DNA of 64,000 bases, from contig OZ025279.1 of the NCBI GenBank assembly GCA_964019165.1, positions 1,052,501 to 1,116,500 on the forward strand. Reading direction: 5' to 3'. The notes under the pieces are model-generated. The model did not search any database. It was not told where the DNA came from and saw nothing but the letters and a program-made list of their open reading frames with translations. Each line of letters starts with the position of its first letter. Position 1 is the stretch's first letter. The stretch is from Mastigias papua. Its lineage: Eukaryota; Cnidaria; Scyphozoa; Rhizostomeae; Mastigiidae. Positions 34,601-49,600 of this stretch are shown one piece after another. Position numbers and translations under genes: made by a program.

Positions 34601-37600
34601 TCAAATCACTAGCAGCACTCTCAAACACATATATGCAGCTTCCTTTCCAAACAAACTGTACTGCTAATTATACAAGAGGCTCCTGTACAAATCCTTCACT
34701 TGAAATTAGCCATCATATTGTCAAACTTAATTCGTTCCATTCTTTCACTTCATTTTCCAGAGCAATTACCCACCACTCCACCAAAAACAACTATGTTAGT
34801 TTGTCTTTTCGCATCCAAAAAGTATGTTGACAAAATATTTTGCCATCGAAAAAGTGCATTAAACAATTAATAAATAACTATTTTCTTTGATTCCAAAGAA
34901 CAGGTACTGGGAAGGAACAGCTCCAATTTTCAATTCGAAGATACAGCTTTAAAACTAACCATGTGCAAAGACTCCAAAGTGAAGTATATGCTGCTACAGG
35001 CTACGGAAAGAGCGCGATATTGTTCAGAAACCGCTTCAACTTCAGCCATTATCACATCTGTCTCTTCGACTTTCTTTGTAACCTCGGCTGCCTCTTTTTT
35101 CAATGTTTCAAGTGAGCCAATGATTCTAACAAATAGAGCCATAGTTGGTCAGAAAGATGCTAAACAGAAAATATTTTCATGGTAGAATTCTTCTAATACC
35201 TACCATCAAGCAAACTCGATTTGATGTAAGAAAGTAATACTCAAATGGAGACACGTAAAGTTCTGAGATTGCTAATATTCCATATATCATAGCTATGGAA
35301 TTTTGCTAATGAATCAACAATCGTTGCACTCCAAAGACAATTCTATATTCCTTTGAAATAACAAAAAGTTTAGAAAAGGCAAACGAATTTACATATATCA
35401 ACACTTACTTGTCATCATCAAGAATTCTTCCCTTAGCTTCATTCAATGCTTGCAATAATTCCTTCTCTAAATGTCGAAGCCGTACATGGAATTCGCCTAA
35501 AAAAGGTGACGAAATTATAAAACAACAAATCCCAAGGTTATTTAATCCTCATTAATACAAACACAACGAGGCATGGAACAATCACGTCCTGCAAGTAAAA
35601 TGCAGGTTTTCACAATAAAAGGCCAATAAACCGAAATGTAATTGATGCCAGAAAAGTGTTGGATATCTGGGATGAATTCCTCAGAAGCCACACAAAGCCA
35701 ATATATGTAAACAAGACAAACTCAAGAAAAGAAAAGTAGAGCCATGATGTTGCTGAATAAGAAGTATGTTTCTATCAAGTACCTTGCAGTTTCAGCAGAT
35801 CAGATCTTTTTGCATCAACTTCTGGTCTCTCTGCTCTCAATACATCATTCAAACACTGGCTCTGTAAACTTCCTCGAGTAACAGTAAAATTCACGAAAGT
35901 TACCCTTGAGCACAGATCGGGTGCGAATTCAACCTGTTTTTAAAAGACATTGTGAATTCAGCTTGAGGACTAAGAACTACAATCTGTCACCATTATCACG
36001 TAAAAACTACTCAAACTAAGTTGGCCCTAACAGAAGAAAAGCAGAAAAATGTACAAGAAAGAGTGAGAACAGACTCTTATCCAATAAAAAAAGGTGCTCT
36101 GGTCAGAGGTGGGAAAGAGAAAATTCAAACAAATTGACAACTAAATTAAACAGGGAGAGCTTGCATACCGTTGGATCCCTTGTTGAAAGGAAGATAGTAA
36201 ATGCTGGCGACAAATCAATGTCTTGATCTCCTATTGTAATCAAAACACGACCCCCTGTACGTCGCAGTTCCTTGTTTAGGACAGGATTCAGAATTGGATC
36301 ATAACTCTCGACATCTTGTACCAACAGAGGATTTCCAAACCTAAGCGAGCTCTCCAGATTCTTCCTAAATGCATCATCGAGGAAACTAGATGGAGGTAAG
36401 GAGGATATATGTTGAGATAACAAACAGCAAAATCCAAAGTATTAAACAGCATATGAAATAAATTTAGCAAAAACCATAAAGCAATTTTTCCTTATTTCCA
36501 ATGATTTTACTTTTTATAAAAACAATGAACCTGTGTGAACTCGCAAAAAATTAAAAGAAAGGAAAATTAATTTCTTTGCAAGTGTTGTAAAGACCCGTCA
36601 ATAAGAACTAACATTGTATGATATCGAAATGCGGGCTACTCTCATCTGAGCCCTCATCACCGTGGCAAGGTCTAACAAGGGGGGGGGGGAGGATTTCTAG
36701 CAAAAGTATCGAAACAAAGCAAATACATAAGCATTTGGAATCTATATGTTATAGTTCTTTGATGAAAAAGGGGTGAAGTGTTGTGGCTACAGGCTTCTCT
36801 GCGTGAGACTAATGATGAGATGAAACTTTAAGACATAAGGGTGAATCCATTACATACCTTGTTCTATTGATTTTCTTTGCTTTGTATTCATTCATAACAA
36901 ACTTAGTTGCTTGGCCAGATGGATCAATTATTAATGGATATCTGTTGTATCTTTTGAGCATAATAGCATTCTCAATGCATAAATCATCCGATGGCAATGA
37001 ATTTGCTTGCCAATCCAACCGTTCATCAGCAGTTGATAAGTACTAAAACGACAAAAATCCATACTTAAACCGAGTAACACAAAATTACGAAACACATAAA
37101 CATAAAAGTACTGGCTCAGTGGGCGCAATTTTAGTAGCTACAATCCGTGCAGCCACTCGATCCTACATTCTGGATCGTTCAATACCCCTGCGCGACTCAT
37201 CATAGCCAATATCCATGCGAAGGAGATTATGAAATCAATTCTTGCCAATCAACTGAAATCAAAATGAAATAAAGTCTTTAGACAATTCCTAAAACAAAAT
37301 CCATTTCCTGAGATTTCACACAGTTGGTAATAATCCAGCAAAAGATGAGAAATATTGAGAAATGGGTCAGTTGTCAGATAAATAACTTAACTGTAACAGC
37401 ATACACAAGGAATTCAAAATATAAATATAAATAAATGCATCAATATTTAAATATATATATATATATATATATATATATATATATATATATATATATATAT
37501 ATATATATATATATATATATATATATATATATATATATATATATATATATATATATATAGAATGACAAACAACTATGGGAACAAGGGACAATATTGATCG

Positions 37601-46600: not shown

Positions 46601-49600
46601 CGATTTGAATTGGAGCTAAAACCATTCCATGTGGTGTTCTTCTGTATTCGCAGTAATGATCAAAAGTTTTCAGTATCAATTCAGGTGTTGTTGCACTCGA
46701 AAAATTAAGACCAACAACCTGTGAAAGAAATACAAATAGGAATGATATAAAAACTTAAATATGCATTCTTCAATACATCAGTTATATGCGACTTCCAACT
46801 TAGGAAAAACAAAAAATTGACGAAAAACAACAACTATGAATTAATACCACTATGACTTTGAAAAACAAATAAACTCGTGCTGGTGTTTATTTTGTCAAAT
46901 ATCAATTTTGATTTCTTTTCTACACAAGCTGTTCTGCAAATGGAAAATTACTTTCAGTGAAATCTGAAGCTTGATTCCTACTGAAGAACGTCCCGAGAAT
47001 TTCATGCTTGACTGAGTTTCTCTTTAACACTCTTTGAAGAAATACTTCAAGAAAATCAGTTATCTTTTAATGCGGAAGTCGATTGTTTACCTCCATATCT
47101 GGGAGCGCTCTTAGGGCAGAAAACAACGTCATTGTCTTCCCGCTACCTGGCGGGCCACATAGAACTAGTGGCTTATGCTCTGCCAACCACGTGTACAAAA
47201 GTGACTCGTGGCGTACGGTATCAAGTGTTGGTACGACTACATCCGGAGAAGCGACTTTGTGTGTTTCAACTTCGATTTGTGGGACTCTGTTTTGCCATGG
47301 CAACCACTCGCCCTGAATTGTCACCTAATGGAAAATGATATGCAATTCAAAACAGCAGAACTTTAAGACAGGAAAATTGAATACAAATGGAGAAATGGGC
47401 AGATGAACAAATAGAAAATAACGAAATAGAGAATTATTATTTTGTGTCCATGCCACACAAAACTATTTTATGATATTTCTACCATAAAATACAAAACACT
47501 AAAATCGATTAACAAGCTATAATATCACTTTACATTCTGAAGATCATGAATTCCGCAAAAACCATATTTCAACTTACTTCGTAATCGATAATAGGCATAG
47601 AAGATGAACTTGGAAGTGGAATAGTTGTCACTTTCTGGATGTAATCTCCAACCTCCTCTCTAATTTTCAACCTGCCATCACCAGACATACACCATAGTAG
47701 GCAATACACCAAATACTTTGGTATGTATGATTCCACTTGGTCTCTCTAACGATAAAAATGGAAGTATGACATAGAGAAAGGCAGAAGTGAAGGACAGCGC
47801 AAGACAGCACTATGGGGGGGGGGTATAAAATATAATTAAGGAAGAAACTGAAATGAATAAAGAAATTTTAAGGGTAGGTTGACAGACTCAAAGGCAAGGA
47901 AAAAAGCTACACGGGATGCAGATGCATTAAAGAACACTTTAAGAACGTTTAATCTAGATAGAATTTAAGAAACCTGAATTAAATTGCTTAAAAAATTCGA
48001 AAATTTGCAAACATTAAATTACTGCTAGAAAACAATCAACAAAATTTCAAAATTTATCTTGGGAAGTCGAGTTCCATTAGTGTCAAAGTAAGTAATTTAG
48101 CTCCTACCGTCATTGGGAAATCTGGGTGCTGTTGATTGTATGTGATGATGTTCCTTGCACCTTGATTGAGCATAGAAAACAACGAATTCAGTGCTCGCAT
48201 TTTGGTGAAATCCATCACATGATCGAGGCCAGCTGCGTACTGCAAGCATTTCAGGACAAGTCCATCTGACGTCAAATGTGGGGCAAGAATGTCAGCAACA
48301 TCTCTTTGCACCTGAAAACGAGGGTAATGATCCTTTGGTTTATTGCAAAGCACCTTGTAACAGGCCATGGAGATACCTCTCACTTTCTTTTACTTGTGAG
48401 CTGATTAATTTCCCTACCTTTTATCCACTATGAAACCACTATCTATTTCAAAAACCAGTCAAATATCAACCTATGAATTTTCAATGACACAGCACAGCGC
48501 TCATAGAGGCAAAAGTAAGTTCTGATTTCATACTTTCAATGATTTCAGATAATCATGGCTATATCAGATATGAGACGATTTTCAAAGATAAAAAATCTCA
48601 ATCCGCCCGTCTCTTTATCATCATCTATAACAATTAATAGACGTTATGGAAATTGAAACTCATCAAGTAACAAAACGGTTAATAATACAGACTGTCTACA
48701 ACGGCAACAGTCTAGTTCATTATAACAAGTTCGACAATTGATGCCCTCCTTTTTAAATCATCTTTCTACTTCGTCTGTTTTCCCGCCTAACATATTCCAT
48801 ATTTTACCTAATAAATATCAATTTTCATCAGCGCCTATTATAACGAAATTTCCAAGATCAAACTGTACCACGATATAGTTTGGCCACGACCTGCAAAGAC
48901 TTTTCAAGACCACGCCCTTCGACTCTACAAAATTCCAGGTATTTCCTTCAGCTGTATGACACATAATGTTGTATGGCTAAACGCTCTTTCTGGCATACTA
49001 TGAAGTATTACTAACAGGTTATCGTAAGGAATGGTAGCCAAATAGAATAAAAATCTTGAGAATTTCAAGACTATTAACAATGGATCATTCCTTTAAATTT
49101 CCTAGACCACGCTCTCGAAAGTGTGGCTAAGGCCATGGCTTCCAATTCACAAAGAGAATCCTACCCCTATTCAAGTGACACGATAAACCAACCCAATCTC
49201 ACATTTTAATCAAATAACCCACTTAAGCGAACAACGTATAACCTGCATCATTGGAGAAAGTGCTTTATCATCTGAATCACCACCAGAGATTTGAGACTTT
49301 GAGAATCGGTGTCGCATTTCTTCTTCCGATTCTTCCAAAGGCAGCGATTTCAGTTTGTTCAAATAATGATCGATCTTCATTTCAGGTGTGACAACATCCT
49401 CGCTGAACCAAACCATTCCACAACGACTAACAGTGGCCAATGTAGCATACTTCAAGTCTTGCACTTCAAACATTATACGAACCTACAATCACAGGAGAAA
49501 ACGGGCAAGTCATTCTGGATAATTATTACCAAATAAGATACAAAATAAATTTTCAAGTTCTATTCCAGATCCTGTTCGTTGTTTTTGATAGTCTGATTGT

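What the first reader, a model, noticed from the sequence alone, without database searches (positions are those of the whole stretch)
37110..48631. Dynein heavy chain introns host five box C/D snoRNA genes
Five separate minus-strand sequences in five dynein introns each have an exact RUGAUGA box C, a CUGA box D 40-80 nt later and a complementary terminal stem. All lie on the host strand, and three or four sit 67-113 nt from the downstream acceptor, as intron-encoded C/D snoRNAs do. Known vertebrate hosts are mostly ribosomal or translation genes; I know of no report of the dynein motor gene as a snoRNA host. This would couple production of rRNA and U6 guides to expression of a motor protein.
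Basis: partly seen in the sequence, partly recalled or inferred. Interest (0 to 1): 0.88.

Follow-up and report, generated by a model that had tools for sequence, protein, structure and literature searches.

The report
snoRNA genes inside dynein introns
In what is likely a jellyfish genome, five introns of the cytoplasmic dynein motor gene each carry a sequence with all the marks of a box C/D small RNA gene, of two types, which are predicted to be released when the introns are spliced out and would guide methylation of ribosomal RNA and of the splicing RNA U6.

Summary
Five minus-strand elements in five introns of a cytoplasmic dynein 1 heavy chain gene each have an exact RTGATGA box C, a CTGA box D and a terminal stem. 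The same scan finds 0 on the other strand and a mean of 0.88 in shuffles. They are two families. Three carry GACGGGCGGA before a TTGA box D', the guide expected of SNORD43/snR70 for a universal small-subunit rRNA site. Two carry GCGCAGGGGTA at the SNORD94 place, the guide for U6 C62. The two SNORD94-like copies are 91 of 97 identical, with 60-nt flanks at 16 and 17 of 60. The three SNORD43-like copies keep boxes and guide but have different, still paired terminal stems. In the 346.8 Mb genome the exact SNORD43-type pattern has 3 matches, all in this gene; a SNORD94-like 121-mer has 2 places, both here. No Rfam family reaches its gathering score, and SNORD43 is not matched even at E 10. Expression, methylation and conservation in relatives could not be tested. 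This is a new host for ancient guides; a dynein host was not found in four paper searches.

The parts
48558..48631 (-). SNORD43-like copy A in intron 0 (stem to stem, 74 nt): box C 48624-48618, guide GACGGGCGGA 48611-48602, D' TTGA 48601-48598, box D 48567-48564
   Evidence: model match; box D is 252 nt from the exon
43011..43082 (-). SNORD43-like copy B in intron 10 (72 nt): box C 43076-43070, guide 43063-43054, D' 43053-43050, box D 43020-43017
   Evidence: box D is 72 nt from the exon
40914..40982 (-). SNORD43-like copy C in intron 14 (69 nt): box C 40975-40969, guide 40962-40953, D' 40952-40949, box D 40924-40921
   Evidence: box D is 118 nt from the exon
41906..42002 (-). SNORD94-like copy a in intron 12 (97 nt): box C 41997-41991, guide GCGCAGGGGTA 41987-41977, D' 41976-41973, hairpins 41971-41952 and 41950-41928, box D 41913-41910
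   Evidence: box D is 96 nt from the exon
37112..37208 (-). SNORD94-like copy b in intron 21 (97 nt): box C 37203-37197, guide 37193-37183, D' 37182-37179, hairpins 37177-37158 and 37156-37134, box D 37119-37116
   Evidence: box D is 73 nt from the exon
37611..48311 (-). Mapped part of the host gene, cytoplasmic dynein 1 heavy chain, exons 1-21 (exon 22 starts at 37042); the gene goes on in both directions
   Evidence: exon map; a 1013-residue piece (exons 3-21) matches dynein 1 heavy chain residues 2539-3551; exon 21/22 junction as in P0001
48312..49242 (-). Intron 0 (931 nt, GTTATA...TTTCAG), host of copy A; its donor was read by eye and not checked against a homologue
42945..43433 (-). Intron 10, host of SNORD43-like copy B
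41814..42143 (-). Intron 12, host of SNORD94-like copy a
40803..41280 (-). Intron 14, host of SNORD43-like copy C
37043..37610 (-). Intron 21, host of SNORD94-like copy b

Best explanation
Five introns of this cytoplasmic dynein 1 heavy chain gene each hold an element with the boxes, terminal stem and guide of a box C/D snoRNA gene, three SNORD43-like and two SNORD94-like, which are likely released when the introns are spliced out and are predicted to guide 2'-O-methylation of small-subunit rRNA and of U6. Likely path (inferred): the pre-mRNA is spliced, the lariat is debranched, exonucleases trim up to the C/D protein complex seated on boxes C/D and the terminal stem, and fibrillarin methylates the base paired to the fifth guide base before box D'. 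Counting five from D' TTGA gives the third-from-last C of CCGCC in the universal CCGCCCGTC, which is E. coli 16S C1402 and, as I recall, the equivalent of human 18S C1703, the SNORD43 site; in the other family it gives the third C of U6 CCCC, C62, the SNORD94 site. The copies likely arose by duplication within the gene, with selection on the RNA itself (inferred).
For: Scan: 5 true sense hits plus 1 over an exon, 0 antisense, shuffles mean 0.88. Three-copy and two-copy families with the guide in fixed register. Homology stops at the terminal stems: 91 of 97 inside, 16 of 60 and 17 of 60 outside, for the SNORD94-like pair. The three SNORD43-like stems differ in sequence, yet each keeps 6 pairs. 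Rfam SNORD94 aligns box C and guide of both U6-type copies (24.5 and 22.1 bits, E 0.03 and 0.13), the two lowest E-values in that scan and again over the dynein region 21.5-64 kb. Host strand in 5 of 5; box D 72-118 nt from the exon in 4 of 5. Printed targets: SNORD43 18S C1703, SNORD94 U6 C62 (PMC6466398, passages).
Against: No Rfam family reaches its gathering score in the window; SNORD94 needs 60 bits and has 24.5 and 22.1; SNORD43 is not among the 9 matches up to E 10. Copy A lies 252 nt from its acceptor and its stem has a single G-C pair. In copy b the base before the 9-nt guide core is C where copy a has the T that I recall as fitting U6. Inside the three SNORD43-like copies GAGAC can pair with GTCTC near box D, which would cover part of the guide in the naked RNA. 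No RNA evidence. The species' own 18S and U6 were not obtained.
Confidence: 0.9

Rival explanations
1. The five are dead copies (for example retrocopies) of snoRNAs whose working genes lie elsewhere in the genome.
For: snoRNAs are known to move and leave copies (PMC3511168 and PMC8178906, passages). Copy A sits far from its acceptor.
Against: Boxes C and D and the guide core are intact in 5 of 5; stems are kept by different sequences. The exact SNORD43-type pattern has no match outside this gene; the only outside match of the SNORD94-type pattern has its next CTGA 690 nt on.
Confidence: 0.05
2. The elements are working snoRNAs but are transcribed from promoters of their own inside the introns, not made by splicing of the host.
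For: Independent snoRNA genes are known in several lineages (established knowledge). Promoters in these introns were not examined here.
Against: 5 of 5 are on the host strand, and 4 of 5 lie 72-118 nt from the acceptor, the arrangement of splicing-dependent C/D snoRNAs.
Confidence: 0.05
3. The elements act mainly in cis, as structures that tune dynein splicing, rather than as guides.
For: An intronic snoRNA that masks its host's branch point is known (SNORD2 in EIF4A2; PMC10324135, passages).
Against: A cis role does not explain guide sequences for 18S and U6 kept in register with D' in 5 of 5.
Confidence: 0.03
4. Chance co-occurrence of short boxes in AT-rich introns.
For: Shuffles give a mean of 0.88 and at most 4 hits, and one extra sense hit overlaps an exon.
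Against: Two guide sequences repeated 3 and 2 times in register, sharp homology limits and 0 antisense hits.
Confidence: 0.005

Closest known systems
SNORD43 / U43 / snR70 (Rfam RF00221, RF01238, clan CL00059)
   Same: Guide core GACGGGCGG before box D', about 70 nt, predicted target the same small-subunit rRNA C (printed as 18S C1703 in PMC6466398, and as Cm1705 / yeast Cm1638 in PMC3511168).
   Different: No Rfam match up to E 10, so common descent is not shown by sequence model. Three copies in one gene. The printed human host is RPL3; here it is dynein.
SNORD94 (Rfam RF00613)
   Same: Box C, spacing and guide GCGCAGGGGTA align with the family model; printed target U6 C62.
   Different: 97 nt instead of the 137-position model, D' TTGA where the model has CGGA, 24.5 and 22.1 bits against a gathering score of 60. 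Two copies. The printed human host is PTCD3; here it is dynein.
C/D snoRNA families with several copies in introns of one host (human families in PMC8178906; sponge ribosomal protein genes in PMC3412847)
   Same: Copies of one family in different introns of one gene; PMC8178906 gives 59.5% of human C/D families with all expressed members in one host (passages).
   Different: Here the introns are far apart (0, 10, 14 and 12, 21), two families interleave and the host is a motor protein. The sponge duplicates lay in neighbouring introns of ribosomal protein genes (passages).

Membership tests
Box C/D snoRNA (class) | Box C RUGAUGA near the 5' end and box D CUGA near the 3' end | tested here: met
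   5 of 5 exact
Box C/D snoRNA (class) | Short terminal stem that brings box C and box D together | tested here: met
   6, 6, 6, 4 and 7 consecutive pairs
Box C/D snoRNA (class) | Guide next to box D or D' that is complementary to rRNA or snRNA | tested here: met
   GACGGGCGG is the complement of CCGCCCGTC in E. coli 16S from 1399; GCGCAGGGGUA matches the SNORD94 model. The species' own 18S and U6 were not obtained
Box C/D snoRNA (class) | Stable 65-100 nt RNA bound by fibrillarin, Nop56, Nop58 and 15.5K | not testable with these tools
   no RNA or binding data held
Intron-encoded snoRNA | Inside an intron, on the host strand | tested here: met
   5 of 5
Intron-encoded snoRNA | Box D near the 3' splice site, as splicing-coupled C/D snoRNAs usually are | tested here: inconclusive
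   72, 73, 96 and 118 nt in four; 252 nt in copy A
SNORD43 (RF00221) | Guide for the CCGCCCGTC site, fifth base before D' on the known methylated C | tested here: met
   3 of 3 copies, counted on E. coli 16S as a stand-in; the equivalence with human C1703 is recalled
SNORD43 (RF00221) | Match to the Rfam covariance model | tested here: not met
   absent at gathering score and at E up to 10; so called SNORD43-like, not SNORD43
SNORD94 (RF00613) | Guide GCGCAGGGGUA after box C, for U6 C62 | tested here: met
   2 of 2 copies
SNORD94 (RF00613) | Rfam gathering score (60 bits) | tested here: not met
   24.5 and 22.1 bits, E 0.03 and 0.13; so called SNORD94-like

The most novel reading that the evidence does not exclude
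A motor-protein gene is the only genomic source of two ancient guide RNAs: in this animal, methylation of the decoding-site cytosine of the ribosome and of U6 C62 hangs entirely on transcription and splicing of cytoplasmic dynein 1, with five copies over five introns buffering the supply.
Probability: 0.5. Interest if true: 0.62.

Novelty: new member of a known kind. Interest (0 to 1): 0.5.

Why it matters
It adds a cytoskeletal motor gene to the hosts of guide RNAs. In the passages I read, human snoRNAs that follow their host's abundance sit mostly in ribosomal protein genes (PMC8176728), while PMC3511168 argues that broad expression is what a host needs; a dynein host fits the second view. 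snoRNAs of early-branching animals were described as poorly characterized (PMC3412847), and Rfam misses these five at its gathering scores, so the loci are seeds for better models. If dynein is the only source of both guides, host coupling becomes directly testable in a jellyfish.

Tried and rejected
Rfam at gathering score: 0 matches in the whole window. At E 10 over 36.9-48.9 kb there were 9 matches, 2 of them SNORD94 on the two U6-type copies; the other 7 (SNORD61, SNORD28, Afu_335, snoR30, pestivirus 3' UTR, mir-297 twice) I took as chance or as the (AT)n run. At E 5 over 21.5-64 kb there were 5, again with 2 SNORD94; SNORA61 at 28216-28338 (22.6 bits, E 3.7), mir-297 and mir-598 were set aside as chance. 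The sixth C/D-like hit, 46579-46479, overlaps exon 4 and its donor and was set aside. A scan allowing one box C mismatch but asking for 5 or more stem pairs gave 4 sense hits, all among the five, and 0 antisense; it misses copy 94a, whose stem has 4 pairs. A covariance model of the three SNORD43-like copies finds those three (86.7-95.5 bits, by construction) and then only 3 hits of 11.4-13.4 bits, E 1.2 or more. The third genomic SNORD94-type pattern, C5:7947056, was set aside: its next CTGA is 690 nt on. The pair count on the two SNORD94-like copies shows 18 of 18 pairs formed in both but only one change, A-U to G-U, so no covariation. tRNA scan: 0, and it uses bacterial settings.

Papers, all from one open-licence library: searches with dynein terms gave 0, 0, 3 (I read passages of PMC8016320, unrelated, and only the listing of the other two) and 1 (listing only). 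Further searches; 0 papers; jellyfish, listing only; (listing, then passages of two: PMC10234308 and PMC8176728). Passages only were read of PMC6466398, PMC12205218, PMC3412847, PMC3511168, PMC8178906, PMC10324135, PMC10234308 and PMC8176728. No supplement was read, so the 1782 host genes counted in PMC3511168 may include a dynein; its main text has 0 occurrences of the word.
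Full report
What was checked. A scan of the 64 kb for RTGATGA, then CTGA within 50-130 nt, with at least 4 consecutive flanking pairs, returns six sense-strand hits: the five, plus one that overlaps exon 4 and its donor. It returns none on the other strand, and a mean of 0.88 (maximum 4) in 100 first-order Markov shuffles. A second scan of 21.6-64 kb, looser on box C but asking for 5 stem pairs, gives 4 sense hits, all among the five, and 0 antisense; copy 94a drops out because its stem has 4 pairs.

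Two families. Three elements share AGAGACGGGCGGATTGA at a fixed distance from box C and measure 55-61 nt from box C to box D. Two share a 97-nt unit running from terminal stem to terminal stem, 91 of 97 identical, with 60-nt flanks at 16 of 60 and 17 of 60. The terminal stems of the three SNORD43-like copies have different sequences and six pairs each. The SNORD94-like pair carries two more hairpins between D' and D; all 18 pairs tested form in both copies, against 19-44% when slid, but with a single one-sided change this is not covariation. A model of the three SNORD43-like copies finds no fourth in the window.

Targets. In the first family the fifth base before the TTGA box D' is a G that pairs with the fourth base of CCGCCCGTC. 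In E. coli 16S this motif starts at 1399, so the paired base is C1402. I recall this as the equivalent of human 18S C1703, the printed SNORD43 site (PMC6466398, table passage). [quoted passage not shown] In the second family Rfam aligns box C and GCGCAGGGGUA with SNORD94 in both copies, whose printed target is U6 C62; the fifth-base count on U6 as I recall it agrees. Just before the 9-nt guide core copy b has C where copy a has T. The species' own 18S and U6 were asked for many times, but the tool did not complete.

Against membership by model. No Rfam family reaches its gathering score anywhere in the window. The SNORD94 matches are 24.5 and 22.1 bits against 60, and SNORD43 is not among the 9 matches up to E 10. 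I therefore say SNORD94-like and SNORD43-like. The class, box C/D snoRNA gene, rests on boxes, stem, guide, intron position and copy pattern.

Host. A 22-exon map gives a 1013-residue piece (exons 3-21) that aligns along its whole length with residues 2539-3551 of cytoplasmic dynein 1 heavy chain 1 at about 1880 bits, against 386-387 for dynein 2 and 438 for the best axonemal dynein. The best protein relative of the piece, 93% identical, carries a label that I recall as the Aurelia genome project (P0001), so the animal is likely a scyphozoan; no call names it. Introns 0, 10, 12, 14 and 21 hold the elements; all five begin GT and end AG. Box D to exon distances are 252, 72, 96, 118 and 73 nt in that order. 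Exons 1, 2 and 22 were placed by reading frame; exon 22 and most of exon 2 agree with P0001. Intron 0's donor was read by eye only.

Genome-wide. The window lies in a 346.8 Mb genome of 172 contigs. The exact pattern TGATGA + 1-14 nt + GACGGGCGG has three matches, all in this gene; its reversed control has one. The SNORD94-type pattern has three, two of them here; the next CTGA after the third is 690 nt on, so it is no C/D element. A 121-nt DNA search finds two places, both here. Copies with an altered TGATGA, or with the guide before box D, would be missed, and the tool calls DNA counts lower bounds, so 'sole source' is plausible, not shown; a looser pattern did not complete.

How it probably works. 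Splicing of dynein pre-mRNA would release the lariats, C/D proteins bound at boxes and stem would stop the exonucleases, and the mature RNAs would guide fibrillarin. In vertebrates box quality, structure, terminal-stem stability and host expression best predict which snoRNAs are expressed (PMC10234308, passages); the first three are favourable here, the fourth was not measured. All of this is inferred. Copies in several introns of one host agree with duplication within a host gene, which PMC8178906 proposes for human C/D families (passages). The lack of shared flanks means old duplication or retroposition of the RNA; I cannot tell which.

Known or new. Both guides are old and known. Copies in several introns and changing hosts are known, also in sponges (PMC3412847, passages). 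A dynein host was not found in four searches with dynein terms, which cover the main texts of an open-licence library only. I rate it a new member of a known kind with an unusual host.

Noticed in passing
48558-48631, 43011-43082, 40914-40982 (-): In 3 of 3 SNORD43-like copies the guide's GAGAC can pair with a GTCTC just before box D. GTCTC is kept in all three although the sequence between varies; whether it is a switch, a folding aid or a second guide is open.
   Followed up: partly
41928-41971 and 37134-37177 (-): The SNORD94-like copies carry two hairpins (6 and 8 pairs) between D' and D, kept in both copies with one A-U to G-U change. Their role is unknown.
   Followed up: partly
16510-17329 (-): Reading frame with a Tc3-type transposase HTH domain (PF01498, 40.4 bits, cut-off 31.5) and a shorter frame after it without Pfam match: remnant of a Tc1/mariner-like element. 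Described only.
   Followed up: no
1161-1436, 6921-7247, 7641-7955, 8372-8677 (-): Exons of an Ig and fibronectin type III domain protein gene downstream of dynein on the same strand (fn3, I-set and Ig_3 above Pfam cut-offs).
   Followed up: no
37451-37558 and 46290-46425: A 108-nt pure (AT)n run inside host intron 21, upstream of SNORD94-like copy b, and a TGAT/TGAC tetranucleotide array in intron 4.
   Followed up: no
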